Positions 1-20,431 of a DNA stretch of 38,645 bases are shown here, one piece after another (within the stretch, counting starts at the first letter, position 1; every line of letters begins with the position of its first letter). Under the pieces are notes generated by a model that saw only the letters and a list, made by a program, of their open reading frames with translations, was not told the origin of the DNA and ran no database searches. Where the stretch lies: the NCBI GenBank assembly GCA_944325025.1, contig CALUYN010000016.1:1-38645 (forward strand), given 5' to 3'. This stretch comes from Candidatus Gastranaerophilales bacterium (GTDB taxonomy: Bacteria; Cyanobacteriota; Vampirovibrionia; Gastranaerophilales; Gastranaerophilaceae). Both the position numbers and the translations under genes were made by a program.

Positions 1-1736
1 TGCTGGGCCTGAATTGGCTCCCAGACAGGTTACATTTGTGCCCGTCACGCCTTTACAAGCATTAATACCTATGGCAATATTATCTAAACCTGAAGCTTTT
101 GCACCATATCCAATAGCAATCCCGTAAATTCCGCTAGCTTTTGCCCCATAACCTATTGCTATTGAGCTGCTACCTGTTGCTTCTGGGCTGTTAACAGTAT
201 TGGTTGAGCTGTCTGAACCTCCTATAGCAATCGAATGAGCACCGGAAGCAACAGAAGATAACCCTATGGCAATAGCTGCATAACTATTGGAGGGATAACC
301 GATACTGGCCTGTGCATTATTACCTATTGCAATAGAACCAATTGGTTCTGCAGAGGAGTTATTTCCAATGGCTATTGAATCTGTTCCTGTTCCGGTTGAT
401 CTATATCCCATAGATAAAGCTGATTGTCCAGAAGTTATATGATCTCCTATACCTATTCCATTATCTTCTACTTCTACCAGAGTGCCAATAGCAATTCCTC
501 TTGAACCTGAAATTACACGGTCGTAACCTATTGCCACACCGCTATTACCTGCAGCTGTCCCACTGATTCCTATAGTAACAGAGTTAGGTGAATTAACTGT
601 ACTAGAGCTACCTACAACAATTGAATTGGAAGCTGCATCGTTTGCGGTAATATTTGAGCCAATAACTACAGAATCTTGGCCGCTTACTTTATTATTTGTT
701 CCTATTGCGATTGAATGCAAGCCTGTACTTTCAGTTATTGGCCCCATAGCTATTGAACCTGCCTGCGAAGCTACTGTAGCAGCACCTATTGCAATTGAAC
801 CGTCGCTGTTAGATTGTGCAGCATGAGCAGGCGGGGCCTCTCCGCCGATTGCTATGGCATATGTTCCGCTAGCAGATGCACTGTGACCGATTGCCGTTGC
901 ATTACTGTTTGTTGCTGAGGCATTTACACCTACTGCAGTTGAGTTATCCTGTGCTACTTGAGTATTTCTACCTATAGCTACTGAATTTTCTACAAGATTG
1001 CCGCTTGATAAACTTCCTAGCAACAATCCATTGTTATCAAATCTCAAACTGCCTAAAACTGAATTACCTTGTTTAAATAGAATATGGTCTTTACCATCGC
1101 CGGTATTGATTACCAAACGAGAATTTGTGTCAGTATCTTCTGCTTCCTGCTGACCTATCATGGCAATTTGTGAATCGCCTAAACCATAATAAGCATCAGA
1201 TCCGTTTTCTGCCCATACCCACGGGGATGACTGGTCAAGTTTATTCCTTGTTGTCATCACAGGCGCCATTGCTGCCATGATGATACTTAAAATTAGCATA
1301 ACTACCATCATCTCAGCTAATGTGAAGGCGGCCTTTCTTCTGGGTGAAGAGTGAAGGGTGAAGCGTGAAGAGAATTTGTCTTTACGAGGCAGCGTAGCAC
1401 CCTCACCCCATTGGGGAGAGGGATTATATGTTTTTACGATACTAGCTTTGCATCTTTGCCTCTTGGCTTCTTCGCATCTAATTAAACCCTCACCCGCAGT
1501 TGTAAGTTCACTTTGTTCACACAACTGCTCCCTCTCCCAGAGGGCGAGGGGGAACGTAGCCGTTCCATCCGACACATTAAGATTACATAAAATTCTTAAG
1601 ATACTTCTTAGTAACCTAGCGCCATAGTATCCTAGTATCTTTAAATAGCTTGCCTTCTTGACCTCATGACTTCCGTCTAGCCGAGAAGTGCCCCCCCCCC
1701 GAAGCTCACGTATCTTGTTAATTCATCATTGTTCAT
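1..1736 (-). CDS. Prepilin-signal YadA-head-like surface fibre protein, frame broken at G10 tract, C-terminus outside window
   Basis: The minus-strand frame is open from a prepilin-type segment (KAAFTLAEMM, about 1350-1300) to the left edge. Its body is a long series of short repeats containing SVAIG/AIAIG motifs, the pattern of trimeric YadA-type head domains. The last visible residues match the paralogue at 18303-20431 shortly before that protein's S74 domain, so the missing part probably holds an S74 chaperone. The likely start is ATG at 1736, with AGGAG six bases upstream. From there the reading frame enters a run of ten G (1700-1691) and stops after a few codons. With 11 G the whole stretch to the prepilin signal is open, giving a leader of about 136 residues, most of it made of interspersed repeat sequence. 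The residue before the FTLAE motif is Ala, not the usual Gly. It may be phase-variable, read by frameshift, or decaying. Prepilin and head repeats are clear; the start is inference. Confidence 0.75.
808..1107 (-). repeat. 300-bp block identical to 19809-20108
   Basis: Read base by base, positions 808-1107 match 19809-20108 without a difference (constant offset 19001). Just outside, the two genes differ at scattered sites, and to the left (below about 785) identity falls sharply. The block encodes the region just after the pilin-like stem and the first head repeats. A short perfectly matched block inside diverged paralogues suggests recent gene conversion or a young partial duplication. Confidence 0.85.
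1344..1373. repeat. GTGAAG-type short repeat (copy 1)
   Basis: A run of imperfect GTGAAG(A/G)GT units. A second, longer and self-complementary copy lies at 35732-35789 between two divergent genes. Here the repeat falls inside the frame just upstream of the prepilin signal of the fibre gene and would be translated as part of the leader. Confidence 0.7.
1394..1422. repeat. CCCTCACCCC/GGGGAGAGGG palindromic repeat (copy 1)
   Basis: A G/C-rich dyad (CCCCATTGGGG core) followed by GAGAGGG and preceded by GTAGCACCC. Related sequence occurs at 1484-1559, 18029-18204 and 35043-35098. It is much richer in GC than its surroundings, which suggests a mobile or imported short repeat. Confidence 0.7.
1484..1559. 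repeat. CCCTCTCC-type palindromic repeat with inner dyad (copy 2)
   Basis: The element contains CCCTCACCC, an inner dyad with arms GCAGTTGT and ACAACTGC, then CCCTCTCCCAGAGGGCGAGGG. It belongs to the same family as 1394-1422 and 18029-18204. It is open in the frame that would join the 1736 start to the prepilin signal, so it may be translated. Confidence 0.7.
1642..1674. repeat. AGAGGTCAGGAAGGCAGG-family repeat (copy a)
   Basis: Read on the minus strand it is GGAAGTCATGAGGTCAAG followed by AAGGCAAGCTATTTA. Close relatives lie at 7564-7581, 9711-9795 (two arms facing each other), 16420-16459 and 17886-17920. This copy lies directly downstream of the G10 tract, within the would-be leader of the fibre gene. 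Confidence 0.75.
1691..1700 (-). repeat. G10 homopolymer tract in the 5' coding part of the fibre gene
   Basis: Ten consecutive C on the plus strand, flanked by TG and GA. On the coding (minus) strand it lies 33 bases after the ATG. With ten G the frame ends in TAG five codons after TTC; with eleven it joins the prepilin frame. Runs of this length are prone to slipped-strand change in many bacteria. The same context, TG-C10-GA, occurs at 3985 and 20392. Confidence 0.85.
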
Positions 1737-1810
1737 ACTTACTCCTTTGCTTCTTTTACATACTTATTAATTAAGTATAACCTAATTTCATATTTTTTAT
1801 AAGTATAAAA

Positions 1811-1843
1811 AAATCCGGATGAAAATTTCATCCGGATTTTTTT
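1811..1843. terminator. Rho-independent terminator downstream of HU gene
   Basis: A near-perfect dyad with arms AAATCCGGATGAAA and TTTCATCCGGATTT, flanked by A-rich sequence on the left and T-rich on the right, so it could work in both directions. It lies 16 bp past the HU stop codon on the minus strand and upstream of the fibre gene start, separating the two units. Confidence 0.9.
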
Positions 1844-1858
1844 ATTTATTATGATTAA

Positions 1859-2131
1859 CTATTTAACCATTTCTTTGAATTTTTTACCAGCTGAGAAAGC
1901 AGGAACTGTTTTAGCAGCAATTTTCAAAGGTGCACCTGTTTGAGGGTTTCTACCTGTTCTAGCTGCTCTTTTGCGTGGTTCGAATGTTCCGAAACCAACT
2001 AATGTAACTTTTTTACCTTTAGATACAGTTTTTTCAATTGTTTCTAAAGTTGCAGCGATAATATCTGCAGTAGCTTTTTGAGAAACTTTTGCTTTCTTTG
2101 ATACTTCTTTTACCAATTCTTCTTTGTTCAT
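1859..2131 (-). CDS. hup: HU-family DNA-binding protein
   Basis: A 90-residue protein of the usual HU length, starting MNKEELVKEVSKKAKVSQKA and carrying the family signature GFGTFEPRKRAARTGRNPQTG at about residues 46-66, which forms the DNA-binding beta arm. HU proteins are dimeric nucleoid proteins that bend DNA. The start is supported by a strong AAGGAGG sequence seven bases upstream. A promoter is visible about 80 bp upstream and a terminator follows the gene, so it is probably a single-gene unit. Nothing points to the related IHF proteins or to a plasmid or phage HU. No anomalies seen. Confidence 0.97.
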   Translation of the reverse strand: MNKEELVKEVSKKAKVSQKATADIIAATLETIEKTVSKGKKVTLVGFGTFEPRKRAARTGRNPQTGAPLKIAAKTVPAFSAGKKFKEMVK

Positions 2132-2210
2132 TATGAACCTCCTTTTAATTTGTGCATACAGTAATTGAAACCATTCTCTCTCCGCATGCTCTTTAATATC
2201 GACAAAATTT

Positions 2211-2238
2211 ATTATAGCATTTTATTTAAATTTGGCAA
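2211..2238 (-). promoter_or_regulatory. Sigma-70-type promoter of the HU gene
   Basis: On the minus strand, TTGCCA (2238-2233) and TATAAT (2216-2211) are separated by 16 bp. The predicted transcript would have a leader of roughly 70-75 nt before the HU start codon at 2131. Confidence 0.7.
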
Positions 2239-2330
2239 GTGTTTTTCAAAAAAAAATTTATATCCTTTAAATATACACTGGATTTGCGCAGTCAAAAAGA
2301 GTGCAAAAGGCGTTCTTATAATGGTTTTGC

Positions 2331-3203
2331 CTAGTTATAAGAATCCTCGTTTACTCTGGCAAATTTTACATCTTTATAAAAATATTGTAATATTTGATAT
2401 GCATTATAGCCTTGTTTAGCAAGATTGTTTGCGCCATGCTGCGACATGCCGACCCCATGCCCGTTCTTTTTAACATTATCATCAAATGACGGAACAGAAC
2501 GCAAATAAGGAAGCGTGCTTCCCCAATTGTCAGCATTTGTCTGTCCGCCTGCAGATGCAGAATAATAAGCATTTATAACTTTCATGTTATATGTAAGCAC
2601 AATACCTTTTGTCTGGTCTACAGCGTAATTTGTATCTGCTGTTTCTTTAGAAGCTCCGCCATATGCTTGATCTTCCGGTGTATCTTTGAGGTCGTATCCA
2701 AATTTTGCACGTTTACCTAAATTTGCAAGGGCATAACTTCTTGCTGCAATCGCCTGTGCCTTATGCGCTTCTGCCGCCCAGCCTGAGGGCATTTCAGAAG
2801 GAACAACCCCTTTTATATAATCTTCAAGCGGAACGTTATTGATAACTGTCAATTTTCCATTTTTATTCTGTATCATTATAACTCCGCGGTACCATTTGCC
2901 TTTGGCACTGACAAACCCCTTATCAAAAGTTCTGACAACAATATTATCAGAATCTATTTTATAATATGTGCCGTTATAAAGTATTGCCATTAAATTGTGG
3001 TAAGGTTTGATAACATAACCTTTCATGGCTTCCAAATCGCAAATTGTATGATTTGTGTTTGCATCAATAATCTTGCCGTCAATAGATGTACCGACAGCAG
3101 CAGAGTCAACATCTGTTTGCAATCCTATCTTGATTGCATAGCACGGATTTATAAATATAAAATTACAAATAACTATTGAAAATAATATAATAATCTTCTT
3201 CAC
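2331..3203 (-). CDS. SpoIID/LytB-domain exported protein
   Basis: A 290-residue protein with an N-terminal signal peptide (hydrophobic to about residue 20, cleavage likely after CYA at 23). It carries a SpoIID/LytB domain from about residue 115: VPLEDYIKGVVPSEMP at 124-139, HKAQAIAARSYA at 147-158, and GHGVGMSQHG at 248-257. SpoIID proteins in spore formers are lytic transglycosylases acting on cell-wall glycan; in non-sporulating bacteria this domain is usually found in cell-wall remodelling or amidase-enhancer proteins. The start is GTG, with no ribosome-binding site but a TATAAT box six bases upstream, suggesting a leaderless transcript. There is no sporulation gene nearby, so a sporulation role is not supported; cell-wall remodelling is the likely role. 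Confidence 0.88.
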   Translation of the reverse strand: MKKIIILFSIVICNFIFINPCYAIKIGLQTDVDSAAVGTSIDGKIIDANTNHTICDLEAMKGYVIKPYHNLMAILYNGTYYKIDSDNIVVRTFDKGFVSAKGKWYRGVIMIQNKNGKLTVINNVPLEDYIKGVVPSEMPSGWAAEAHKAQAIAARSYALANLGKRAKFGYDLKDTPEDQAYGGASKETADTNYAVDQTKGIVLTYNMKVINAYYSASAGGQTNADNWGSTLPYLRSVPSFDDNVKKNGHGVGMSQHGANNLAKQGYNAYQILQYFYKDVKFARVNEDSYN

Positions 3204-3209
3204 AAGCTT

Positions 3210-3215
3210 ATTATA
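3210..3215 (-). promoter_or_regulatory. -10 box giving a probable leaderless transcript of the SpoIID gene
   Basis: TATAAT on the minus strand ends six bases before the GTG start at 3203, which puts the expected first transcribed base at or next to the start codon. No Shine-Dalgarno sequence is present, and the -35 region is weak. Confidence 0.55.
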
Positions 3216-3264
3216 ACATATATTTAAATAAATGTGTTTAAATCATAAGATTGATTTTTACACT

Positions 3265-3876
3265 CTAATTTTTCACTAACTTTACATTCGCCTTAACTCT
3301 TTTTGCTGTAGCTTCACCGAATTTTTGGCCTACAGCATAAGATGTCATTGAACCGCCGACAAAAAGCAGACCTTTTATAATAGCTCCGGCTTTGCCTTTT
3401 AACTTATGTTTTTCAAGATATTCAAAAAGAGGCTTCAAAACTTTAGTTTTAGAAAGTTTTGAAATACCTTCTTTCACTGTTTTAGAATTTACAGCCTTGT
3501 CATAATTCTTCTTTATCATCCCTTCGCCTGCAAACATAGCTGATAGTGCTGCAACTTCTGTCACACCCGTTCCGACCTTATCATCAGACATAGCCGTTTT
3601 TAACACACCTGAAGCGCAAATTAAAGGATTAACATTATCTGCAGCAAATTGTACGGCTTTACCTGCATATTCAAAAGCCTTATGCTCATTTGCAAGTTTT
3701 GAAAATACACTCAATGCACTTCTTGCTGAGTTTGCCGCTAAACCGTCGTACTTTGACACTTCTTGCAGCAAACCTGCAGTCTGCCCTAAAGCAACAGTAC
3801 TCCTGCCGACATCACCGTTTTTGGTTTTGTCGACATTCCTGCAAGCAAATATACATGATGCTATTGGACTAAACAC
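3265..3876 (-). CDS. Unknown protein, 203 residues, glycine/alanine-rich helical
   Basis: I do not recognise a family. The start is GTG at 3876, supported by an AAAGGTG sequence eight bases upstream. The protein is mostly predicted helix, rich in Ala, Gly and Lys, with a weakly hydrophobic stretch near residues 165-185 (AIIKGLLFVGGSMTSYAVG) that could be a membrane or buried helix. There is no clear signal peptide. It stands alone between the SpoIID gene (61 bp downstream) and a divergent gene at 4047. The shared upstream region contains a G10 tract 109 bp before the start codon, in the same flanking context as the tracts inside the fibre genes, so its expression might vary with tract length. 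This is speculative. Confidence 0.7.
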   Translation of the reverse strand: MFSPIASCIFACRNVDKTKNGDVGRSTVALGQTAGLLQEVSKYDGLAANSARSALSVFSKLANEHKAFEYAGKAVQFAADNVNPLICASGVLKTAMSDDKVGTGVTEVAALSAMFAGEGMIKKNYDKAVNSKTVKEGISKLSKTKVLKPLFEYLEKHKLKGKAGAIIKGLLFVGGSMTSYAVGQKFGEATAKRVKANVKLVKN

Positions 3877-3984
3877 TACAATTCACCTTTTAATCTACAC
3901 TACAATTATATAAAGTATTTTTTTTTATAAAAATTGCCAAATAAATTACTTTTTTTACATTTGTTACAAAACTACATACAATTG

Positions 3985-3994
3985 CCCCCCCCCC
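3985..3994. repeat. G10 homopolymer tract between divergent genes
   Basis: Ten C on the plus strand flanked by TG and GA, exactly as at 1691 and 20392. Here it lies between the minus-strand gene starting at 3876 and the plus-strand gene at 4047. It could alter promoter spacing for either gene. A short minus-strand frame beginning with ATG four bases... upstream of the run is also lengthened by one extra G, but that frame has no other support. Confidence 0.75.
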
Positions 3995-4046
3995 GAAACC
4001 ATATATAATTTCAAATATAGTATTAATTAATAAAAAAGGGGAAATA

Positions 4047-4859
4047 ATGAAAAAATTTTTAATTCTATTAGTGATTTTAGGTGTTTGTGTGTACATTTTT
4101 AAAGACGAACTTAATCCTAAGGGGGCATTAATAAACAAACTCAACAAATTCAACGAAATTGAAAATATATATTATCAAACAGATATTTCATATAAATTTT
4201 TAGGTCAGCAAGAAACTACCATTACTCTTAAACAATTTAAAAAAGGGAATAACTATAATGCAAAATTCTCAAACCCTATGATGAGAAGCGAAGCTAATTT
4301 AGAATTAAAAAACGGCAATATTCGTTATAACGAATACTTTATGACTGTTGAAGGAAGTGTTAATGAATCAAAAGCAGACAAAAGTTTCTTCTGGCTAGAT
4401 AAAATAACATCAGACGATATTAATAAAGACACAATTAAAAAACTCGAAACACCTGATAACCTTTCAACCTTGAATTGTAAAATGTACTCTTCTGAATTAA
4501 AAAAAGATAAAAACAAAATTGATATATGTATTAATAAAGAAAATATACCAGTGTATATTAAATATTATAATATAGACTTTATCCCATTACTTTTTAGCAC
4601 TAATCCAATCACAAGCGTCACAGAACACAAAGGAGATGTCATATTAAAATTAACTGATATAAAATTAAATCCTGCGTATGACACCTCATTTGACGTAAAA
4701 ACAAGTAAATATGGACTCACAATGACAGTAAAGGAATTAAAAGACCAAATTGCCGAACAGCAGGCTATGTTTAACGAAATAAATGAGTCTATGGACGATT
4801 TAAAATCCCTTATGAACGATTTAAACAATCTGCAAAATACAGAAGATATACATTATTAA
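4047..4859 (+). CDS. Membrane-anchored or exported protein of unknown function, 270 residues
   Basis: The N-terminus (MKKFLILLVILGVCVYIFKD) is a signal anchor or uncleaved signal, so most of the protein should lie outside the cytoplasm. The remainder is Lys/Asn/Asp-rich with alternating beta-type segments, for example YQTDISYKFLGQQETTITLKQ at about 38-58, somewhat reminiscent of lipoprotein-carrier (LolA-like) folds; this is only an impression. The C-terminal 45 residues (VKELKDQIAEQQAMFNEINESMDDL onward) form a likely coiled coil. The start has a good AAGGGGAAATA upstream. It is the first plus-strand gene before the exported-protein/TonB cluster and is separated from the next gene by 76 bp that contain a promoter. 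Confidence 0.7.
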   Translation: MKKFLILLVILGVCVYIFKDELNPKGALINKLNKFNEIENIYYQTDISYKFLGQQETTITLKQFKKGNNYNAKFSNPMMRSEANLELKNGNIRYNEYFMTVEGSVNESKADKSFFWLDKITSDDINKDTIKKLETPDNLSTLNCKMYSSELKKDKNKIDICINKENIPVYIKYYNIDFIPLLFSTNPITSVTEHKGDVILKLTDIKLNPAYDTSFDVKTSKYGLTMTVKELKDQIAEQQAMFNEINESMDDLKSLMNDLNNLQNTEDIHY

Positions 4860-4899
4860 AACAAAATGAACAAATAATCTTTTCATATCGTTTGTTATA

Positions 4900-4927
4900 T
4901 TGATAATAGAAAAAAAACTGTTATAAT
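4900..4927 (+). promoter_or_regulatory. Promoter with short or no leader upstream of gene at 4936
   Basis: TTGATA (4900-4905) and TATAAT (4922-4927) with a 16-bp spacer that includes an A8 run. The ATG follows the -10 box by eight bases and has no Shine-Dalgarno sequence, so the transcript is probably leaderless or nearly so. Confidence 0.7.
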
Positions 4928-4935
4928 ATATAATT

Positions 4936-5520
4936 ATGAAAAAATTACTTGTTATACTCGCTCTATTATTATTCACCGGCAATGTTCAGGCAGAAGATTT
5001 GCCTAACGTTCAGCTTGACATAAGAGATTACGATGCAATTGAAATTCCGGCAGGTACATTCATCCCTGTCATAAATACTCAGGAAATCTCAACACAGTAC
5101 TGTTCAGAAGGTTACAAAGTTAAATTCATCGCAACAAATGATATGTACCTTCATGATACAAATATAGTTCCGCGCGGAACAGAGTTTTACGGATACATTG
5201 AAAAAATTAATGCACCTGTTGTCGGAACCAATGCTGCTATGAAGATTAAAATAACAAAAATGATTTACAAAGACGGATATGAAGTTCCTGTGAGGGGGTA
5301 TTTATACACTTCTAATAACAATGTTTTTGGAGGTGAATTAACTCCGCCTGAAAAACTTTTGAGAATTGCACACCGCCAACAAAAAGTAAAAAGAACAACT
5401 CTTCAAATAAGACCTGGTAATGTTCGTAAAATGGGTGCTCATACAGTTATTCAATCCGGCTCAAATGAAATTATAGTACTGACAGACCCTGCAATGATAA
5501 CTCATACCTTAACAAATTGA
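4936..5520 (+). CDS. Exported protein, 194 residues, related in plan to the next gene
   Basis: It has a cleavable signal peptide (MKKLLVILALLLFTGNVQA, cleavage about 19/20). The mature part has the pattern IPAGTFIPVINTQEIST ... NDMYLHDTNIVPRGTEFYGYIEKI ... MKIKITKMIYKDGYEVPVRG. That is the pattern of the beta-rich C-terminal domain of TrbI/VirB10-like proteins (an upper bound value, a default surface property, then a converter segment). The following gene has the same order of motifs, so the two look like diverged paralogues. No other secretion gene accompanies them, so a type IV secretion role is not supported. They may be envelope proteins linked to the downstream TonB system; this rests on position only. 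Confidence 0.65.
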   Translation: MKKLLVILALLLFTGNVQAEDLPNVQLDIRDYDAIEIPAGTFIPVINTQEISTQYCSEGYKVKFIATNDMYLHDTNIVPRGTEFYGYIEKINAPVVGTNAAMKIKITKMIYKDGYEVPVRGYLYTSNNNVFGGELTPPEKLLRIAHRQQKVKRTTLQIRPGNVRKMGAHTVIQSGSNEIIVLTDPAMITHTLTN

Positions 5521-5566
5521 CTTAATTTTAAAGGTAAAATAAAATAATATAAAAAGGAAGGTTAAT

Positions 5567-6310
5567 ATGGATAAAAAATTCACAACAACTATAGCTGTAC
5601 TGCTTTTGTCTACAACAGCAGCATTTGCAGCACCTAACTATAATTACAGCCAGAATTCACCGGCACCGCAATATCAGCAGAATTTTTATCCTACGCAAAC
5701 ATTAAGCGGAAACCAAACTTTAAAAGGCAGGGTAGTAACGGTTCCGGCAGGACAGAGTTTTCCGGCTGTTGTGACAACTCCGATGAGTTCCGCAAATTTA
5801 ACAACAGGCCAGAATGTAACAATTGCACTCGGGTCAGATTTTTACTATAACGGAAATCTCATAGCACCTGCAGGAAGTTCAATAACAGGAACAGTTCTTG
5901 AAGTTTCAAAAGCTAAACACGGAAGTCTTAACGGGAAATTAATGCTTAGATTTACGCAGATTGTAACACCTTACGGAATACAAATTCCTATTTCAGCAGT
6001 TGTAAAAACTAATGACAATACCGGAGTTTTAGTCGGCGGAACTAAAATGGATGTTGCTAAAGATTACGGTAAAGATGTAGCAGTAGGCGCAGGAGCAGGG
6101 GCGCTTGCAGGTGTTATTATTTCACCTCTTGCAGGAGGAGATATAGGTAAAGGTACAGCACTTGCAACTGCAGTCGGTGCAGGCGGAGGACTTGTAAAGT
6201 CAATATGGGATAAAGGAAACGATGTTGAAATCCCTGCAAACTCCGCAATTCAGCTAGTACTTACCCAACCGATTACTGTTAACCCTGCAATGTTTAATAC
6301 AAATTACTAA
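5567..6310 (+). CDS. Exported VirB10-like protein with glycine-zipper segment, 247 residues
   Basis: The signal peptide ends at AFA (about residue 22) and is followed by a Gln/Pro/Tyr-rich linker (about 25-48). The body has VTVPAGQSFPAVVTTPMSS, IALGSDFYYNGNLIAPAGSSITGTV, and a middle glycine/alanine segment, VGAGAGALAGVIISPLAGG, at about residues 174-192 of glycine-zipper type, then EIPANSAIQLVLTQPITV at the end. The motif order is like the VirB10/TrbI C-terminal domain and like the preceding gene. The start is preceded by AAGGAAGG. It is 46 bp after the previous gene and 70 bp before tonB, all on one strand, so co-transcription is plausible. The function is unknown; an outer-membrane or envelope role is inference. 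Confidence 0.65.
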   Translation: MDKKFTTTIAVLLLSTTAAFAAPNYNYSQNSPAPQYQQNFYPTQTLSGNQTLKGRVVTVPAGQSFPAVVTTPMSSANLTTGQNVTIALGSDFYYNGNLIAPAGSSITGTVLEVSKAKHGSLNGKLMLRFTQIVTPYGIQIPISAVVKTNDNTGVLVGGTKMDVAKDYGKDVAVGAGAGALAGVIISPLAGGDIGKGTALATAVGAGGGLVKSIWDKGNDVEIPANSAIQLVLTQPITVNPAMFNTNY

Positions 6311-6380
6311 GTAAATCGGGTGATAATTTTATTTTTGTTTTAAAATAGAATTAATCAGACAGAATTTTTAAGGGGAGAGA

Positions 6381-7565: not shown

Positions 7566-7581
7566 AGGTCAGGAAGGCAGG
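7564..7581. repeat. AGAGGTCAGGAAGGCAGG repeat (copy b)
   Basis: The core AGAGGTCAGGAAGGCAGG begins within the tonB stop codon. Other copies are at 1642-1674, 9711-9795, 16420-16459 and 17886-17920. Confidence 0.8.
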
Positions 7582-7600
7582 TAGAAAAGGAGGCAAAAGA

Positions 7601-7692: not shown

Positions 7693-7782
7693 AAAATTCC
7701 GAAACTAGTACAAAATAACTAAAACACCCGAGTGCATTGACTGTATAAAGCGATAACAAAATATAATACAAGTTAATGCAAA

Positions 7783-7847: not shown

Positions 7848-7849
7848 TT

Positions 7850-9027: not shown

Positions 9028-9060
9028 TTTCCTGACTTCTAAAGCAAATTTGGAGAAAAT

Positions 9061-9629: not shown

Positions 9630-9710
9630 ATTACCCTCTCACATATAAAAAAAACATTCAGCCCGCAGAGATTTCAGCAAACATTTTTTTATTTACAAAA
9701 CTTTATCTTT

Positions 9711-13544: not shown

Positions 13545-13559
13545 TGCTAACAAAAAATT

Positions 13560-13595
13560 TTCTGCCCGTATTTCTTATATAATAAAAGGGCAGAA
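13560..13595 (+). promoter_or_regulatory. Dyad spanning the -10 box upstream of the gene at 13597
   Basis: Perfect 8-bp arms TTCTGCCC (13560-13567) and GGGCAGAA (13588-13595) flank a 20-bp centre that contains TATAAT (13578-13583). The right arm includes the ribosome-binding GGG just before the ATG. The layout suits an operator or an RNA hairpin that could mask translation. No T tract follows, so a terminator is unlikely. Confidence 0.5.
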
Positions 13596-13596
13596 T

Positions 13597-14010
13597 ATGA
13601 AAATTCAAAACTCGCAAAATCCAATAAATTTCAACGGTCTGTATTTTAAAAAAGTTTCCCCGCAAATTCAGGAAGCATTCTGGGAATGCCCTGCTATTCA
13701 AAAGCTCTCACTTAACAACGATGTATTTATATCCCAATTTCAACGGGAAGTACAAGAACCTTACGGAAAAATTCTTGAATACGGGTATAGATGCAAAATC
13801 GTTGAACCACGAAACCTTTTCCGGCCTGACAGAAAATTGATTTTTGACGGAATATCCGAAACAGCACTGGATTTATCAAAATATAAAAATCAAAAGGAAA
13901 TAAACGATACTGTCACAAACGATATAGTTGAAGAAATCGGCTATATACATAATGTTAAAGATTTTATAGAAAATTTCTGCAAGGTTATAAAAAAAGATTT
14001 TGGCATTTAG
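13597..14010 (+). CDS. Unknown protein, 137 residues
   Basis: No family recognised. The protein begins MKIQNSQNPINFNGLYFKK and has no signal peptide or membrane segment. The rest is soluble-looking, with EAFWECPAIQKLSLNN, a charged middle, and a C-terminal helix (NVKDFIENFCKVIKKDF). The INFNG near the N-terminus recalls VSFRG in the unrelated protein at 21652-22059. It is a single gene, convergent with fliR three bases away, under a promoter with a striking dyad. The start codon is supported by AAAGGGCAGAAT. Confidence 0.65.
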   Translation: MKIQNSQNPINFNGLYFKKVSPQIQEAFWECPAIQKLSLNNDVFISQFQREVQEPYGKILEYGYRCKIVEPRNLFRPDRKLIFDGISETALDLSKYKNQKEINDTVTNDIVEEIGYIHNVKDFIENFCKVIKKDFGI

Positions 14011-14013
14011 AAA

Positions 14014-14793
14014 CTAAATAATTTTCGCAAACGACAAAAAGTAATCAGTAATAATATTTACAAGCATAGGCAAAATCCACACCATTATTGCTGCGCCTAA
14101 TACTGGTTTGAAAAGAAAACTTAACTGGAATACGTTAACCTGCGGAGCTGTTTTTGAAATTACACCGAGGATTATATCCTGCCCTAATGTCGCAAGCAAA
14201 ATAGGAGAAGCTATCTGAAGCCCCATAAATAACACATTTGACGACAATTCAACCATATAATCAAGGTTGACAAGCTTTGCAAGCGGGATTAATGTTGCAT
14301 CAAGAGGGAATATCTCAAAACTTCTCATTAAAGCGCTTAAAAGCCAGTAAACACCCCCGAGCTGAATAAAAATTAAAAGCCCGAGAAAAGAAAAACATTT
14401 ACCTACAATAGATACCTGAGAAGACGTTGTCGGATCCAAAACCATAGCTGATGACAAACCCATCTGCATATTTACCATATCACCGCCCGCATCAACAGCT
14501 AGAAGAATTAACTGCGCAATATACCCGAGCATCGCACCAACTACCATATTCAAAAATATAGAAAGTACAAAAGACTCTTTTATTATTGTTACATCAGGTT
14601 TTATAACACAGGTTAAAACTATTGAAAGAATTAATGCAAGACTCAATTTTACCATGCCGGGAATTTCCTTTCTGTTAAAAACAGGAGCAAGTCTGAAAAA
14701 TCCCAGAAGTCTTGCAAATATGAAAATTCCGGCTGCAAGATAAGCGTTCAGCAGCGGAAACATTTTCATTAATTCGGTTATTAATTCTTCCAA
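14014..14793 (-). CDS. fliR: Flagellar/type III export protein FliR
   Basis: A 259-residue multi-pass membrane protein of the export gate that, with FliP and FliQ, forms the pore for secretion of flagellar or type III substrates. Sequence landmarks are FARLLGFFRLAPVFNRKEIPGMVKLSLALILSIVL near the N-terminus and GGDMVNMQMGLSSAMVLDPTTSSQVSIVG in the middle, both typical of FliR. The listed start is TTG at 14793, four bases after the fliQ stop. Two internal ATG codons (residues 9 and 11) are alternatives and would cost little. It is the last gene of this minus-strand run; no flhB or flhA follows, as the next gene is convergent. Confidence 0.93.
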   Translation of the reverse strand: MEELITELMKMFPLLNAYLAAGIFIFARLLGFFRLAPVFNRKEIPGMVKLSLALILSIVLTCVIKPDVTIIKESFVLSIFLNMVVGAMLGYIAQLILLAVDAGGDMVNMQMGLSSAMVLDPTTSSQVSIVGKCFSFLGLLIFIQLGGVYWLLSALMRSFEIFPLDATLIPLAKLVNLDYMVELSSNVLFMGLQIASPILLATLGQDIILGVISKTAPQVNVFQLSFLFKPVLGAAIMVWILPMLVNIITDYFLSFAKII

Positions 14794-14797
14794 TTAA

Positions 14798-15286
14798 CTA
14801 TCTCCCCAGAATTGTATTTGTTTCGACAAAATCAGGTTTTGGCATCGGTGTCTGAGGACTCGGCAGATATTTTATTTTCTGCTGATTATCTATATAAGGC
14901 ACCTTACCCGGATTTTTCATCAATTCATCCATTGAAGGCTGATTTTTAAATTTGTCATTCATTTCATGTTCAAACGGTGATGTATATTTATAGTAGTCAG
15001 CCGGCAAAACGTAAGAATCACTTTTTGAAACGAGATTAAACGCCATTGCAAAGCCGTCAATTACAAAACCTTTTAGCATATTTATAAAACCTATACCGCC
15101 CATAACAATTACAAGAAAAACTCCCAAAATTTTAGGTGCAGCAGCAATAGTCTGTTCCTGTACCTGCGTAACCGCCTGTAAAATACCGACGACCAAACCT
15201 ATTCCGGCTGCCACAAGTACGCAGGGCATTGATATAGCGAGCATTATTAAAAAACCTTTTGCTAAATATTCAACTAAAACTTCCAT
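14798..15286 (-). CDS. fliQ: Flagellar/type III export protein FliQ with a long C-terminal extension
   Basis: The first 88 residues are a standard FliQ: two membrane helices (about 12-37 and 50-78) joined by the TQVQEQTIAAAPKI segment, in the usual length for the family (about 89). The protein continues for about 70 more residues of polar, Pro/Lys/Asp-rich sequence (YYKYTSPFEHEMND, MDELMKNPGKVPYIDN, PSPQTPMPKPDF). FliQ normally ends near residue 89, so this tail is unusual. It has no stop or frameshift sign and its codon use looks like its neighbours. The tail would probably lie on the cytoplasmic or periplasmic side depending on topology. The function of the extension is unknown. Confidence 0.93.
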   Translation of the reverse strand: MEVLVEYLAKGFLIMLAISMPCVLVAAGIGLVVGILQAVTQVQEQTIAAAPKILGVFLVIVMGGIGFINMLKGFVIDGFAMAFNLVSKSDSYVLPADYYKYTSPFEHEMNDKFKNQPSMDELMKNPGKVPYIDNQQKIKYLPSPQTPMPKPDFVETNTILGR

Positions 15287-15341
15287 TTTTTACCCTTTCT
15301 GAGATTTTTCCCGCTCTGCAATTTGCAGCGTGACAAAAATT

Positions 15342-15983
15342 CTAATTGTAACTCGTCACAAGCCCCTGTACAATAAGCGCCCAACCATCCACCGCAATAA
15401 ATATCAGCAATTTAAACGGCAATGATATAATCGTCGGCGAAAGCATAAACATACCAAGTGCCAGCAATATATTGGCAACTACAAGGTCTAGAACTATAAA
15501 CGGAATAAATATAATAAACCCGATTTCAAATGATGTTTTTAATTCGCTTATGATAAATGCCGGAGCAACCTGCCATACAGTAATTTCTTCGGGATTTTGA
15601 GGTGCTTTGCCCTTTGACATTTCCACAAAAAATGCTAAATCACTCTCTCTTGTCTGCTTCATCATAAACTCTTTCAAGGGCTTTGAACCCTCATTAATCG
15701 CCTCGATGACATTTTGATTTTTATGATACGGGACAGAGCCCATTTCATACATCTTTTGAAAAGTCGAACCCATTGTATAAAATGTTAAAATCATTGCAAG
15801 TCCGATAATTACGATTGAAGGCGGAACCTGCTGTGTACCTAACGCTGTTTTTAGCATTGAAAACACAATGACAAATCGCAAAAAACTTGTCATACAGCAA
15901 AATACCAACGGCAGTAATGAAAATACCGTCATTAATATTAACATTTGTAATACAGGATTCATATCTTTTATAATTGTGTCCAT
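15342..15983 (-). CDS. fliP: Flagellar/type III export protein FliP
   Basis: A 213-residue membrane protein of the export gate. The N-terminus PVLQMLILMTVFSLLPLVFCCMTSFLRFVIVFSMLKTALGTQQVPP contains the FliP signature (TSF.R...V...LR.ALGTQQ.P). The C-terminal half has LAFFVEMS ... EITVWQVAPAFIISELKTSFEIGFIIFIPFIVLDLVVA, also characteristic. Most flagellar FliP proteins carry a cleaved signal peptide and are about 245 residues long; this one starts directly before the first membrane helix, as type III secretion SctR proteins do. The 55-bp gap to fliQ contains a small dyad (CTGCAATTTGCAG). It lies 13 bp after fliO. Confidence 0.95.
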   Translation of the reverse strand: MDTIIKDMNPVLQMLILMTVFSLLPLVFCCMTSFLRFVIVFSMLKTALGTQQVPPSIVIIGLAMILTFYTMGSTFQKMYEMGSVPYHKNQNVIEAINEGSKPLKEFMMKQTRESDLAFFVEMSKGKAPQNPEEITVWQVAPAFIISELKTSFEIGFIIFIPFIVLDLVVANILLALGMFMLSPTIISLPFKLLIFIAVDGWALIVQGLVTSYN

Positions 15984-15996
15984 TATATTTTTCCTT

Positions 15997-16374
15997 TTAT
16001 AGTTTGTTTATCAAGTTTTTAAAAACTTTTTTAGGCTGCTGAGCTTTATTGATATTTACTATTGAAGGAAGCTCATCCACACCTTGCATATTCTCAGACT
16101 GGACATTTACGGCATCCACATCTTTTGTTTTTATATCAAGCTTTGATATAAGAGAAGTTTTATCCACATCCGAGGCAACAAGAAATCTTTCGCGTCCTGC
16201 GCGGATTACATAAAGATTTTTGCGTGGGCCAAGACCTATACAGTCCTCAATATCTAAAAATTTTGATTTTGAAACAGAACAGTAAGAGAATTTTTTATAA
16301 ACAAACAAGGCCAGAAAAATTATCCCGACCATTGCCGCTGTATAAACTATGAAATTTATCAAATATCCGCTCAT
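15997..16374 (-). CDS. fliO: FliO-like export assembly protein
   Basis: A 125-residue protein with a single N-terminal membrane helix (about 8-28) and a small cytoplasmic domain containing FLDIEDCIGLGPRKNLYVIRAGRERFLVASD, the FliO pattern (LGPRK.L...R.G...L...). FliO assists assembly of the FliP ring. The C-terminal tail is Lys/Gln-rich and probably disordered. The start has GAGAGGGTG upstream. It follows the SpoA-domain gene by 85 bp, a gap that holds one copy of the AGAGGTCAGG-family repeat, and precedes fliP by 13 bp. FliO is typical of flagellar rather than type III secretion systems. Confidence 0.88.
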   Translation of the reverse strand: MSGYLINFIVYTAAMVGIIFLALFVYKKFSYCSVSKSKFLDIEDCIGLGPRKNLYVIRAGRERFLVASDVDKTSLISKLDIKTKDVDAVNVQSENMQGVDELPSIVNINKAQQPKKVFKNLINKL

Positions 16375-16419
16375 TTTTTCACCCTCTCAGTCAAAATAGA
16401 ATTTTCAAGTACTTTATGT

Positions 16420-16459
16420 AAATAGCCTGCCTTCCTGCCCTCTTGTCCTCTGTTCTTCC
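16420..16459. repeat. AGAGGTCAGGAAGGCAGG-family repeat (copy d)
   Basis: Read on the plus strand: AAATAGCCTGCCTTCCTGCC then CTCTTGTCCTCTGTTCTTCC. It matches copies a, c and e as reverse complement. It lies inside the export operon, between the SpoA-domain gene and fliO, so it would be transcribed. Confidence 0.75.
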
Positions 16460-17650
16460 TTAAATATCTTCATCCTCTAATTCAAAATCGCTGTAGTCAA
16501 ACTCATCTTCTTCGCTTGCAGGCTGTTCGCCTTGCGCTTGAGGGGCAGGAGTTTGCTGAACATTTTCATCCAAAGATTCGTTAAATTCATCCTCAAAACC
16601 TTCCTGCTGAGCCGGAGCTTCAGATGATACAGTTTTTGCAGGCATTTGCGCAATAACCTCTTCTATCTTAACGCCGTATCTGTCGTTAACTATAACCAGT
16701 TCTCCGCGCGCAATGGGTTTGTCTTCAACGCTTAACGTAACTTTGTTATCATATATTGAAGTAAGATCAACAACTAATCCTTCTTCTATCTTTTTGAGTT
16801 CTCCAAGAGTAATTTTGACTGTATCAAATTGAGCACCCATTTCAACTTCAATACTATCCCAGAGATTAGTGTTTTCTCCTGCCATATTATCTTCTCCTTC
16901 TTCGTTTTCCACCGGTATAACCAGTCCTAAATTCGGGTTTAAATTTATTTCTTTCTCATAATCCTTGAACTTCATAACCATATGGTTAATATTGCTGTTA
17001 TCAAACACAACAATGTCATCAACTTCTATATTTTTTACATCTATAAGTTTAAATTTTGTACTTCCAACTTTTACAGAAATATCAATTACACTTGTTGAAA
17101 AATCTCCGTAGTCAAACTTATCCTTTTGCGAAACAACAGTTTCAGGGTTTAAAAGCACATCGGGTAAAGTTATTACAAACTTTGCGACTTCATTTTTTTC
17201 AATGTCTTTCAACAAAAAAGTCAAATGCACAACATCAAAATTAGTTCTTTTCAACGTTGGCGGGGGCGGAGAAAGAAATTTTGAAGTCATATTAAACATA
17301 TAGTCATTAAATGCTGTAATAATTTTGGCTTCCAAATCAGTTAATTTGTTTAAATTAAATCTGGAATTTGGTTTTCCTAAAATCTTATCCAGAATAATTC
17401 CAACAGCTTTTTCAGAAGTTCTGAAAAACATATCATGGAGTTTGTCAATGCGAATTTTGGTAACAAAATACGCATCTTTATCCATCAATGTATTAATATT
17501 TTTGCTTATTCCAACTAAAATAAACTGAAAGCCAGGCAGGAAAAATTCATCACAAGCAGCCTGAACAGCCGGCGGATAGGTTTTTGCAAACCAATTGTAC
17601 TGCGCATACAATTCTTTATAATCTATTGAGTTGATTTTTTGATTAATCAT
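16460..17650 (-). CDS. Tandem SpoA-domain switch/C-ring protein (FliM/FliN- or SctQ-like)
   Basis: A 396-residue protein. The N-terminal ~180 residues are helical with no obvious match, though in position they correspond to the FliM middle domain. Two SpoA-type domains follow: about 185-250 (VIDISVKVGSTKFKLIDVKNIEVDDIVVFDN) and 265-335 (WDSIEVEMGAQFDTVKITLGELKKIEEGLVVDL ... NDRYGVKIEEV). The C-terminal 55 residues are Glu/Asp/Gln-rich and likely disordered. FliM carries one SpoA domain and FliN one; two in one chain is the plan of SctQ/HrcQ of type III secretion. Its genomic place before fliO-P-Q-R fits FliM/FliN. The cytoplasmic ring of a flagellar motor or a related export machine is the likely site. 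A fused FliM-FliN is the main alternative. Confidence 0.8.
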   Translation of the reverse strand: MINQKINSIDYKELYAQYNWFAKTYPPAVQAACDEFFLPGFQFILVGISKNINTLMDKDAYFVTKIRIDKLHDMFFRTSEKAVGIILDKILGKPNSRFNLNKLTDLEAKIITAFNDYMFNMTSKFLSPPPPTLKRTNFDVVHLTFLLKDIEKNEVAKFVITLPDVLLNPETVVSQKDKFDYGDFSTSVIDISVKVGSTKFKLIDVKNIEVDDIVVFDNSNINHMVMKFKDYEKEINLNPNLGLVIPVENEEGEDNMAGENTNLWDSIEVEMGAQFDTVKITLGELKKIEEGLVVDLTSIYDNKVTLSVEDKPIARGELVIVNDRYGVKIEEVIAQMPAKTVSSEAPAQQEGFEDEFNESLDENVQQTPAPQAQGEQPASEEDEFDYSDFELEDEDI

Positions 17651-17885
17651 TTTTTAATCTTCTATCCCTTGTTCAAGTCTGTAATAATGAGCTTTCCCCA
17701 TAAATACAATAGACTATTTACTAATAGTGCACATCAATCATTTAATGGATATTTTGAAAAAATCAAGCAGAATATTTATAGGAAGATAAGCTAAAGTTAG
17801 AGGCAAAGATGCCAAGAGGCATAGAGGCAAAGCTGTTATCAATAATAAATTTTGTCCCAGTTTTACCTAAATAGCTATAAATGAA

Positions 17886-17920
17886 AATAGCCTGACCGCC
17901 TGCCTTCCTGACCTCTGTCA
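17886..17920. repeat. AGAGGTCAGGAAGGCAGG-family repeat (copy e)
   Basis: AAATAGCCTGACCGCCTGCC then TTCCTGACCTCTGTC; its reverse complement contains AGAGGTCAGGAAGGCAGG exactly as copy b. Confidence 0.8.
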
Positions 17921-17937
17921 GCTATAACAATTATGCG

Positions 17938-17958
17938 ATTGCGGATCAAGTCCGCAAT
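17938..17958. repeat. Short dyad ATTGCGGA/TCCGCAAT
   Basis: Arms ATTGCGGA and TCCGCAAT separated by TCAAG, followed by GACG. It is G/C-rich against its surroundings. I have seen similar short elements scattered in other genomes, but cannot name a family from the sequence alone. Confidence 0.6.
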
Positions 17959-18028
17959 GACGAAAAGCATAGAACCATCACGAATATATGACAAATGCTG
18001 ACATAAATTGTCTAACATGTCTACATGC

Positions 18029-18204
18029 GTAGCACCCCTCTCCTTGTAAAGGAGAGGGGGAAGGGGTGAGGTTTCTGTTCCCCCTCCCTGATTAGGGAGG
18101 GGCAGGGGTGGGTATTGATTGTTACCCATCCTCTTATCCTTCCCTAATAAGGGAAGGAAGGGTTAAGCTACTCCCTCTCCTGTGAGAGAGGATAGGGGTG
18201 AGGA
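18029..18204. repeat. Cluster of CCCTCTCC/GGAGAGGG palindromic repeats
   Basis: Three or more imperfect palindromes lie side by side: CCCCTCTCCTTGTAAAGGAG AGGGGG, CCCCCTCCCTGATTAGGGAG GGG, and CCTTCCCTAATAAGGGAAGG, then CTCCCTCTCCTGTGAGAGAG. The preceding GTAGCACCC also precedes the copy at 1394. They lie downstream of the second fibre gene, as related copies lie at the 5' end of the first. Confidence 0.75.
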
Positions 18205-18212
18205 ATGATAAA

Positions 18213-18243
18213 CAAAAGGAAAACCCGCATATTTCTATGCGGG
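18213..18243 (-). terminator. Terminator of the second fibre gene
   Basis: On the minus strand, CCCGCAT, a six-base loop, then ATGCGGG is followed by TTTTCCTTTTG. It starts 60 bp after the stop codon of the fibre gene. A second small dyad (TACCGC-TGT-GCGGTA, 18264-18278) lies between it and the gene. Confidence 0.8.
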
Positions 18244-18302
18244 AAGGAATGAAAGAATAAACATACCGCTGTGCGGTAAGTTTTTCTTTTCTGAATAAAC
18301 AA

Positions 18303-20431
18303 TTATTTTATTTGTGCCTCAAGTTTTTCTATACGGGCTTCTAGCTTTTTATTGTCTTTCTGAAGCTGTTTCAGAATCACAGTTAACTCTTGATTTTCTT
18401 TTTCTAGTGCCGTGATACGCGAATCAAGTTCTTTTATTGCATTTATCATGGCATAGAACATATCTTCAAAACGTATTCTCAAAAAACCGTCTTTGGCTTT
18501 TGTTACTGCGTCAGGAAAGACTTTTTGCAAATCCTGAGCGATTACACCAACGTGAGGCGTTTTCTTTTCGTCTTTTTTAAAGGTGTAGTTAAATACTTTT
18601 AACTGTTTGATTTTATCCAAGCCTGATGTATTTTCTTTGCCGACGTATTTTAATCGGCGGTCAGACACACTAAAATTATAAGACCAGTCATTTGGAGATT
18701 TAAAATTTCCATTATTTTGGAAATTATCAAGTCCACTACCTACACCGATAACTGCAGCTTGAGAGTCCTGATCACGGTTAGCGAACCAATATACACCACC
18801 AGTCCTTATATGTTTATCATCATTTTCTGCTGCTGCTGAAATTATACCGCCTTTTACGATAAGCAGGCCGTTTATAACAACTGAACTACTTATTTTTTGA
18901 CCATGTAAGGCTGTACCGTCAGAATTTGAAGTTGTACCATTATGCACCTCTAAGACTGCAGGCCCATTATTAAAGTTTGATCTGCTGCCGATAAATATTC
19001 GTTCTGTACTATCTGATGCACTTGCCCAACTTGAACCAGAACTAGGCCCTGAATTAGCGCCGATACATACTTTATTTTTTCCGGTCACACTACTACAAGC
19101 ATTATAGCCTATTGCTACATTATAATCATTATTTGCTTTTGCCAGAGCTCCTAAAGCAACACTATGAGAACCAAAAGCATCTGTAGCATACCCCAATGCT
19201 GTGGCCGTTGTATCACCTGTACTATTTCCTGCCTCCGCATAAGGGCCTAAAGCGACCGAATTCGGACCAATGGTTTTAGCCTGAAAACCTAAGGCAACAG
19301 AATTACCGCCTGCCAAACCTTCACCGGATATCGACTCTGTACCTATAGCTATGGAATTATCCGCCGAAGTAACAGCTGATCTTCCAATTGCAATACCATT
19401 TTGTCCGGCAGAGGTAACAGTGTCACTGTCAGAGTTAGAACCAATTGCAATTGCGTAAGAGGAATTGGCTCTTGCTAATCTGCCGATTGAAATTGTTCGA
19501 GATTGACCAACTGGCTGTTCTCCAATCACAATTGCTTCTGAAGCCAAATTACTTAAATTTATATTATTACCTATTAATATTGAATTATTAGTTGATACGC
19601 CTCCATTTGATCTTCCCAATACAATACTGCCTGTTCCGCTAACTTCTCCATTTGATACACCTAAAACAATACTGTCTTGACCGCTTACATTATTATTTGT
19701 GCCAATAGCTATAGAATGTAAACCTGTGTTTTCTGTTATTGAACCAATAGATATTGAACTTGCTTGAGAAGCAACAGTACCCGGGCCTATTGCAATTGAA
19801 CCGTCGCCGTTAGATTGTGCAGCATGAGCAGGCGGGGCCTCTCCGCCGATTGCTATGGCATATGTTCCGCTAGCAGATGCACTGTGACCGATTGCCGTTG
19901 CATTACTGTTTGTTGCTGAGGCATTTACACCTACTGCAGTTGAGTTATCCTGTGCTACTTGAGTATTTCTACCTATAGCTACTGAATTTTCTACAAGATT
20001 GCCGCTTGATAAACTTCCTAGCAACAATCCATTGTTATCAAATCTCAAACTGCCTAAAACTGAATTACCTTGTTTAAATAGAATATGGTCTTTACCATCG
20101 CCGGTATTAATTACCAAACGCGAATTTGTGTCAGTATCTTCTGCTTCCTGCTGACCTATCATGGCAATTTGTGAATCGCCTAAACCATAATAAGCGTCAG
20201 AACCATTTGTTGCCCATACCCACGGTGATGACTGGTCAAGTTTATTCCTTGTTGTCATCACAGGTGCCATTGCTGCCATGATGATACTTAGTATTAGCAT
20301 GACAACCATCATCTCGGCTAATGTAAAGCCAAAATGATTAAATCTAGACTTGCTTAATTTCCCAAAAACCTCGTCAGGAGTGCTTAGAGTGCCCCCCCCC
20401 CGACTTTACATTTGTTTACAATCATTCCCAT
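18303..20431 (-). CDS. Prepilin-signal, YadA-head-like fibre protein with C-terminal S74 self-cleaving chaperone, frame broken at G10 tract
   Basis: From ATG at 20312 the frame gives 669 residues, but the prepilin signal HFGFTLAEMMVVML lies upstream of that ATG. The better start is ATG 20431 (GGAG eight bases upstream). It joins the main frame only if a G10 tract at 20401-20392 is read as 11 G, giving a 39-residue leader before the Gly-Phe cleavage site. The body has about 400 residues of head repeats (SVAIG, AIAIG, SIVLG). The C-terminus carries an S74 peptidase domain, beginning SDRRLKYVGKENTSGLDKIKQL with the catalytic Ser, then HVGVIAQDLQKVFPD and RFEDMFYAMINAIKELDSR, and ends in a coiled coil. 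S74 domains help trimeric fibres fold and then cut themselves off. A pilin-type export signal on such a fibre is unusual. Expression is probably switchable. Confidence 0.85.
19809..20108 (-). repeat. 300-bp block identical to 808-1107
   Basis: The partner of the identical block in the first fibre gene, in the same orientation 19.0 kb away. Direct repeats of this length could recombine, either exchanging sequence between the two genes or deleting the DNA between them. Confidence 0.85.
20392..20401 (-). repeat. G10 homopolymer tract near the start of the second fibre gene
   Basis: Ten C on the plus strand in the context TG-C10-GA. On the coding strand it lies 30 bases downstream of ATG 20431. 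Ten G lead to TAA two codons later; eleven open the frame to the prepilin signal. Confidence 0.85.

What the first reader, a model, noticed from the sequence alone, without database searches (positions are those of the whole stretch)
1691..20431. Two fibre genes each need the same one-base correction in a G10 tract: phase variation or programmed frameshifting
In both fibre genes the ATG with a good ribosome-binding site leads into ten G and then a stop, while 11 G would join it without any stop codon to the prepilin and head-repeat frame. I traced both frames: 1736 to the prepilin signal in gene 1, and 20431 to HFGFTLAE in gene 2. Long G runs in bacterial surface genes commonly mediate on/off switching (established for several pathogens). 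That both are off by the same single base also allows a -1 ribosomal slip or transcriptional slippage on the G run, or a systematic homopolymer length error in the assembly.
Basis: partly seen in the sequence, partly recalled or inferred. Interest (0 to 1): 0.82.

Follow-up and report, generated by a model that had tools for sequence, protein, structure and literature searches.

The report
Pilin genes parked one G short
In a group of uncultured gut bacteria, dozens of genes for hair-like surface fibres each carry a run of ten Gs that leaves the gene one letter out of step, most likely a switch that rare copying slips turn on, so that different cells wear different fibres.

Summary
Both window fibre genes start with a good RBS-ATG, run into exactly ten G and stop; the prepilin frame lies one base away. 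Relatives are Candidatus Gastranaerophilales. In this genome 37 of 53 prepilin places carry such a tract upstream, in a leader that prepilin peptidase should remove (recalled).

Of 164 prepilin genes with a tract that I read in several genomes of the genus, 132 are one base short, 11 one too many and 21 in frame, modulo three. Two further genomes gave 39 of 45 one short.

Ten is also the length in genes that are open at ten (8 of 9 non-prepilin genes). The G strand follows replication, not the gene: 237 of 240 tracts counted in five genomes lie on the G-rich, leading strand, and prepilin genes read them as G10 or C10. That favours a DNA-level, replication-coupled switch over RNA-level frameshifting, and speaks against assembly error.

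Best reading: default-off slippage phase variation of a large pilin repertoire, like B. breve pili but genome-wide and replication-polar. No reads or RNA were available; switching itself is inferred.

The parts
1734..1736 (-). start codon of fibre gene 1 (AAAGGAG a few bases upstream)
1691..1700 (-). G10 tract in the leader of gene 1
1677..1679 (-). frame-0 stop TAG that ends the 19-aa product at ten G
1267..1341 (-). N_methyl prepilin signal of gene 1, in the shifted frame that is open from 1722 on
1..1377 (-). gene 1 stretch with prepilin signal and YadA head repeats; the frame runs off the window
20429..20431 (-). start codon of fibre gene 2
20392..20401 (-). G10 tract in the leader of gene 2
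20384..20386 (-). frame-0 stop TAA that ends the 15-aa product at ten G
20268..20339 (-). N_methyl prepilin signal of gene 2, in the shifted frame open from 20405 on
18303..20312 (-). listed ORF of gene 2 (its ATG lies inside the prepilin signal); YadA head repeats and C-terminal Peptidase_S74
3985..3994 (-). third G10 tract with the same close flanks (TTC-G10-CA), intergenic, between divergent genes and upstream of 4047-4859

Best explanation
The two tracts belong to a genus-wide set of DNA-level phase-variation switches. Each switch sits in the leader of a prepilin gene, a stretch that prepilin peptidase should cut off, so its sequence and length are free to vary. Replication keeps the tract close to ten G on the leading strand. 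At ten G most prepilin genes are one base out of frame and stop after 11-34 codons (median 15). Rare slippage to 11 (or 8) opens the whole frame. Cells would then show small random subsets of a large pilin and fibre repertoire, off by default. Shown: tract, frame, length peak, one-short rule, replication polarity, and (weakly) purifying selection on the shifted frame. Inferred: that length varies within a population, that slippage is the switch, that the prepilins become pili or fibres, and what advantage this gives.
For: (1) 164 prepilin genes with a tract: 132 one short, 11 one too many, 21 in frame, modulo three; at n=10, 129 of 136 need 11, 7 need 10, none needs 9. Need 11 prevails in each phase class (ATG-to-tract distance 0, 1, 2 mod 3) and both coding orientations (at n=10: G 73 of 76, 8 of 11, 12 of 12; C 13 of 13, 17 of 18, 6 of 6), so it was probably re-set more than once. 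Out of sample: G044 22 of 24 one short, G023 17 of 21. (2) Ten is the peak whatever length the gene needs: 170 of 208 tracts; by my reading non-prepilin genes are in frame at ten in 8 of 9 cases at n=10, among them two family-2 glycosyltransferases. (3) Strand follows replication: neighbouring tracts share a strand in 198 of 206 pairs in five genomes and 113 of 119 in two more; prepilin genes on both strands share one tract strand per contig in the own genome; GC3 skew pooled by contig agrees in 46 of 48 contig groups of five genomes and 237 of 240 tracts of at least nine (overlapping loci counted twice in places); in G007 skew and tract strand flip at the same places. (4) Lengths 8, 9, 11, 12 do occur; the paralogue L045 (n=11, in frame) has a leader like that of gene 2. 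(5) A tract-less orthologue of gene 2 (L112) is intact in the shifted frame; dN/dS 0.17-0.28 in 9 of 10 pairs of five orthologues, the tenth undefined, dS saturated. (6) B. breve pili are switched by replication slippage at default-off G10/G11 tracts (PMC9187656, abstract and passages).
Against: No reads, RNA or protein data were available; switching was not seen. MutS and MutL are present in the genome, so hypermutability through repair loss does not apply. The length peak is very sharp in G007 (66 of 70 prepilin tracts at ten, none of 70 in frame), narrower than the Campylobacter spread (9: 53%, 10: 26%; PMC6321876, passages), which simple random slippage would not give. Slippage in both directions should also allow genes that open at 9, but none of 136 at n=10 does. 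The shared flanks on the G strand are not explained by slippage.
Confidence: 0.62

Rival explanations
1. RNA-level recoding: RNA polymerase adds one residue on the ten-base run, or ribosomes slip -1, so every ten-G gene yields some full-length prepilin without any DNA change.
For: The needed shift at n=10 is +1 nt / -1 frame in 129 of 136 genes and never the other way, which a one-directional recoding event would predict. Ten bases is about the length of an RNA-DNA hybrid (recalled). In G007 none of 70 genes is in frame in the assembly.
Against: The coding strand is G10-like in 118 and C10-like in 46 genes while the replication strand is nearly constant. Ten is also the length where no shift is needed, and 7 of 12 genes that need 10 have 10. 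0 of 164 genes have an SD-like stimulator 7-17 nt before the tract; downstream hairpins were not tested.
Confidence: 0.22
2. A dedicated element: a trans-acting factor recognises YC-G10-C(A/G) with a GCT within +6..+17 on the leading strand, and holds or resets its length at ten during replication.
For: Same flanks on the G strand for both coding orientations: C before the tract 100% and 95%, C after it 92% and 95%; GCT at +6..+17 in 105 of 117 and 41 of 44 against 15 and 2 at +26..+37. In G007 71 of 76 distinct runs of at least eight are exactly ten, and no G7 was met in the 647 kb scanned.
Against: No candidate factor found; a reverse transcriptase writer is unlikely, since the own genome and G007 have no RVT_1 match. 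Tracts outside prepilin leaders share the GCT part less (20 of 37). Gene 2 itself has GCA, not GCT, after the tract.
Confidence: 0.18
3. Assembly or sequencing error: the true length is 11 throughout.
For: Homopolymers are error-prone, and a published G-tract length differed from deep counts (PMC9187656, passages).
Against: Other genes are in frame at ten, and some prepilins have 11 and are in frame. An FtsH-like gene has an in-frame G10 in two genomes, where seven of ten other orthologues read encode the same FGGG with interrupted codons.
Confidence: 0.04
4. The frame is repaired by starting translation downstream of the tract, and the short upstream ORF is only a leader peptide.
For: 80 of 143 off-frame genes have at least one possible start codon between tract and prepilin motif.
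Against: 63 of 143 have none, and 115 of 143 have none with a 4-base SD match.
Confidence: 0.05

Closest known systems
Bifidobacterium breve sortase-pilus G-tract switch (PMC9187656; abstract and passages seen)
   Same: Gut commensal, pilus genes, G10/G11 in the first gene, reference state out of frame by one, replication slippage, default off
   Different: There one or two sortase-pilus clusters per genome open by losing one base; here dozens of type IV-like prepilin genes, tract in the leader, open length one more than the usual ten, both coding orientations, leading-strand polarity
Campylobacter poly-G phasome (PMC6321876; passages seen)
   Same: 5 to 81 phase-variable genes per strain, poly-G of 9-10 in open frames
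GnT mutation hotspots (PMC12344412; passages and one section seen)
   Same: Leading-strand G runs grow at their 3' end by T-to-G change; offers a source for leading-strand polarity and for the lack of T after the tract (4% and 5% in the two prepilin classes)
   Different: A substitution process studied on runs of one to five G; does not explain a fixed ten, the lack of A after the tract or the one-short rule; in that paper a C before the run lowers the rate, while here C precedes the tract
Transcriptional slippage and frameshifting, IS elements (PMC1088944, PMC6211511; search listing only)
   Same: Slippage-prone run with the product one base out of frame
   Different: Not tied to the replication strand (recalled); the first concerns runs of A and T

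Membership tests
Simple-sequence-repeat (translational) phase variation | Repeat tract inside the 5' part of an open frame, so that length sets the frame | tested here: met
   164 prepilin genes plus 45 out of sample
Simple-sequence-repeat (translational) phase variation | Tract length differs between related loci or orthologues, with some in the open length | tested here: met
   n = 8-12; 21 of 164 in frame; orthologues of gene 2 with n = 9 and 10, two of them in frame
Simple-sequence-repeat (translational) phase variation | Genes for surface structures | tested here: met
   N_methyl prepilins; YadA-head fibres in the window; by sequence only
Simple-sequence-repeat (translational) phase variation | Reversible, heritable length change inside one population | not testable with these tools
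   no reads or isolates of one population held
Programmed ribosomal frameshifting or transcriptional slippage | Slippery run in the RNA with product in the shifted frame | tested here: met
   run of G or C in the coding strand, prepilin one frame away
Programmed ribosomal frameshifting or transcriptional slippage | Constraint follows the transcribed strand | tested here: not met
   G in 118, C in 46 coding strands while the replication strand is nearly constant
Programmed ribosomal frameshifting | SD-like stimulator upstream of the slip site | tested here: not met
   0 of 164 with AGGA/GGAG/GAGG 7-17 nt upstream; not every known site has one (recalled); downstream hairpins not tested
Programmed ribosomal frameshifting or transcriptional slippage | RNA or peptide evidence of the shifted product | not testable with these tools
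   none held
Type IV-like prepilins | N_methyl signal (PF07963) near the N-terminus | tested here: met
   53 places in the own genome at E <= 0.01, 48 of them over the curated cut-off, both window genes included
RT-written (DGR or retron-like) element | Reverse transcriptase in the genome | tested here: not met
   no PF00078 match in the own genome (91.5% complete) or G007; 13 of 34 genus genomes have one

The most novel reading that the evidence does not exclude
A length-clamped, replication-polar switch element (YC-G10-C(A/G), with GCT within the next 17 bases, on the leading strand), held at ten by an unknown factor during replication, keeps some 30-70 prepilin genes per genome one base short, so that each cell opens only a few of them at random and a clonal population displays the whole repertoire.
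Probability: 0.2. Interest if true: 0.88.

Novelty: new variant of a known kind. Interest (0 to 1): 0.7.

Why it matters
It turns an uncultured and poorly understood gut lineage into a testable case of population-level surface diversity: dozens of pilin genes, one common default-off setting, and a link between switch orientation and the replication fork that I did not meet in the phase-variation papers I saw. It is also a warning for gene calling: at least in the window the ORF finder starts these genes inside or after the leader, although the shifted frame looks intact.

Tried and rejected
Mismatch-repair loss as the cause of unstable tracts: rejected, MutS1 and MutL are present in the own genome. 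G013, which has no G10CA tract, is the one of 25 genus members there without a full-length MutS1 match, the opposite of what that idea predicts.

Reverse-transcriptase writer that copies a fixed G10: no RT match in the own genome and G007.

Hand reading of C10 genes suggested to me that they were in frame at ten; the script showed that most need 11 like the others, so the hand count was wrong.

Tail of a run-length distribution: in 380 kb of G007 chosen by position there are four G6, no G7-G9 and one G10; in 267 kb chosen around tracts four G6, no G7 or G8, one G9, 61 G10 and one G11. Over the whole of G007 71 of 76 distinct runs of at least eight are ten. In one search the strand of the tract-chosen stretches was set from the tracts themselves, so its strand column is circular; one search repeats the test with GC3 skew.

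Known RNA elements: no Rfam family at gathering score in the window.

Papers: searches listed no paper that I recognised as describing these tracts; most hits were seen only as listings. Library: open-licence PubMed Central, no preprints.

Rows dropped and limits: tracts with identical near flanks were counted once (56 of 57 places in the own genome, 76 of 78 in G007, 36 of 39 in G019). Loci are biased to G10CA. In one search G000, G007 and G019 use runs of at least eight, G001 and G004 only G10CA, G001 from a cut list (23 places), and G014 was typed in but not counted. Of 51 and 89 places in G044 and G023 30 each were fetched, giving 28 distinct tracts each. The start codon was chosen by SD match and the prepilin motif by a loose pattern, so a few calls of the needed length may be wrong. 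The non-prepilin count of 8 of 9 is by my own reading; it leaves out L057 and the first L062 tract (n=12 and 11, both out of frame), the first L053 tract (gene end), L078 and L085 (unclear); L021 also reads from an upstream start at 11. In one search the window copy failed to load and L095 was too short, so the dN/dS pairs are among five orthologues. In one search the contigs were split where the tract strand flips, and stop-free frames stand for genes; two of 48 contig groups and three of 240 tracts disagree, the three being runs of nine with other flanks (L020, L262, L352).
Full report
What is there. On the minus strand of the window two fibre genes begin with a ribosome-binding site, an ATG, 36 or 30 bases, ten G, and then a stop after 19 or 15 codons. 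The prepilin signal FTLAEM and the YadA head repeats lie in another frame, which is open back into the leader. N_methyl (PF07963) hits at both places are over the curated cut-off. A third G10 with the same close flanks (TTC-G10-CA) sits between genes at 3985-3994.

Where it comes from. A HemW-like protein of the window (name by recall) finds relatives of which many are named Candidatus Gastranaerophilales. The genome has 1.76 Mb in 43 contigs and 57 places with a run of at least eight G. Of 56 distinct runs 41 are exactly ten. The string G10-CA occurs in 23 of 25 genomes of the genus (3 to 92 places each) and in 1 of 15 genomes from other genera of the order; read backwards it is rare.

Which genes. 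In the own genome 37 of 53 prepilin places have a tract less than 1000 bases upstream, 29 with G and 8 with C on the coding strand; 16 have none. Three genus members with no or three G10CA tracts have 17, 23 and 25 prepilin places, so the tract-bearing genes look like an added repertoire. The five best N_methyl hits of the own genome are the two window genes (off at ten), L045 (n=11, in frame), L049 (n=10, in frame) and one on contig 32 without a tract; only the window copies were tested for YadA repeats.

The one-short rule. I classified 208 distinct tracts from the own genome, two further genomes and scattered relatives. 164 lie after an RBS-ATG and lead to a prepilin motif. At n=10, 129 of 136 open only with one more base, 7 are open at ten and none opens at nine. 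Overall, modulo three, 132 are one short, 11 one too many and 21 in frame; in G007 none of 70 is in frame. Need 11 prevails in every distance class from the ATG and in both orientations, and in 99 of 111 distinct flank types. Two genomes looked at afterwards agree: 22 of 24 and 17 of 21 one short. At ten the off genes end after 11-34 codons, median 15 (129 genes).

The shifted frame is real. A tract-less orthologue of gene 2 (L112) is open in that frame through 36 residues before the prepilin signal. Orthologues of gene 2 give dN/dS of 0.17-0.28 in 9 of 10 pairs, though dS is saturated. 63 of 143 off-frame genes have no start codon between tract and prepilin motif, so they need the upstream ATG and a frame change.

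Length is set at the DNA level. Ten is the length also where ten is the open one: at n=10, 8 of 9 non-prepilin genes that span a tract are in frame by my reading, among them two family-2 glycosyltransferases and an FtsH-like AAA/M41 protein. In the FtsH-like gene the tract encodes a native FGGGAL: two genomes have G10; of ten other orthologues read, seven encode FGGG with interrupted codons and three differ (FGNG, FGSG); one more was not read. Over the whole of G007 71 of 76 distinct runs of at least eight are ten, and no G7 was met in 647 kb (267 kb of it chosen around tracts). This also speaks against assembly error. Contig 1 of G007 has the length of a named contig with a NODE label, which suggests a short-read assembler (recalled).

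Replication polarity. Neighbouring tracts share a strand in 198 of 206 pairs in five genomes and in 113 of 119 in two more, over hundreds of kilobases and regardless of gene strand. Four of the eight discordant pairs are on contig 2 of the own genome, where three of the five runs are atypical (8, 8 and 9 long). GC3 skew, taken separately from genes of both strands with the tracts masked, agrees with the tract strand in 46 of 48 contig groups of five genomes; 237 of 240 tracts of at least nine lie on the G-rich strand, and the three others are runs of nine with other flanks. In 20 position-chosen stretches of G007 both skew measures agree with the tract strand in 12 of the 15 that lie in assigned territory (exceptions at 60, 250 and 450 kb of contig 1), and skew and tract strand flip at about the same places, near 320 kb of contig 1 and 595 kb of contig 2. 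The G-rich strand is taken as the leading strand (usual in bacteria; recalled). A recoding signal would follow the transcribed strand; this follows the fork.

Flanks. On the G strand both coding orientations share C before the tract and C(A/G) after it, and GCT at +6..+17 in 105 of 117 and 41 of 44 tracts against 15 and 2 in a control window; other tracts have it in 20 of 37 against 3. Gene 2 has GCA there. Leading-strand G runs are known to grow by T-to-G change at their 3' end (PMC12344412), which could give birth to tracts in this orientation and fits the lack of T after them, but not the lack of A, the C before them (less mutable in that paper), the fixed ten or GCT.

How it most likely works. 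The leader before FTLAE is removed by prepilin peptidase (established for type IV prepilins; recalled), so it can hold a tract and even long repeats: by the motif pattern used the leaders have 18 to 294 residues, median 47. Slippage at the fork changes ten to eleven (or eight) in some cells and opens the gene. With 21 of 164 loci open in the assemblies, a cell would show only some of its prepilins. This is the default-off logic of the B. breve pili (PMC9187656), on the scale of a Campylobacter phasome (PMC6321876). Against it: repair genes are present, the length peak is sharper than in Campylobacter, and at ten no gene opens at nine. RNA-level recoding remains the chief rival; a dedicated flank-dependent mechanism is the boldest reading.

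Verdict. A real, genus-wide feature, most likely a default-off pilin switch; a new variant of slippage phase variation. Reads of one sample would settle whether the DNA itself varies.

Noticed in passing
window 780-1326 and 19780-20327 (minus strand): Genes 1 and 2 are 93-100% identical over about 500 bases from the prepilin signal on and then diverge to chance level within about 250 bases, which looks like recent exchange between fibre genes.
   Followed up: partly
window 1380-1680 (minus strand): The long leader of gene 1 holds low-complexity and palindromic repeats; strings such as GAAGCCAAGAGGCA recur after other tracts of the genome.
   Followed up: no
window 3985-3994: Intergenic G10 of the same kind before the gene at 4047; it could act on a promoter or 5' leader rather than on a frame.
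   Followed up: no
window 1-1377 and 18303-20312: A prepilin signal fused to YadA head repeats, in gene 2 with a C-terminal S74 chaperone domain: an unusual prepilin-anchored fibre.
   Followed up: no
G013: The one of 25 genus members without a full-length MutS1 match also has no G10CA tract; incomplete assembly possible.
   Followed up: no
L053:829-2452 (own genome, contig 24): Two adjacent family-2 glycosyltransferase genes each carry a G10, 290 bases apart; the second is in frame at ten, the first tract lies near the end of its gene.
   Followed up: partly
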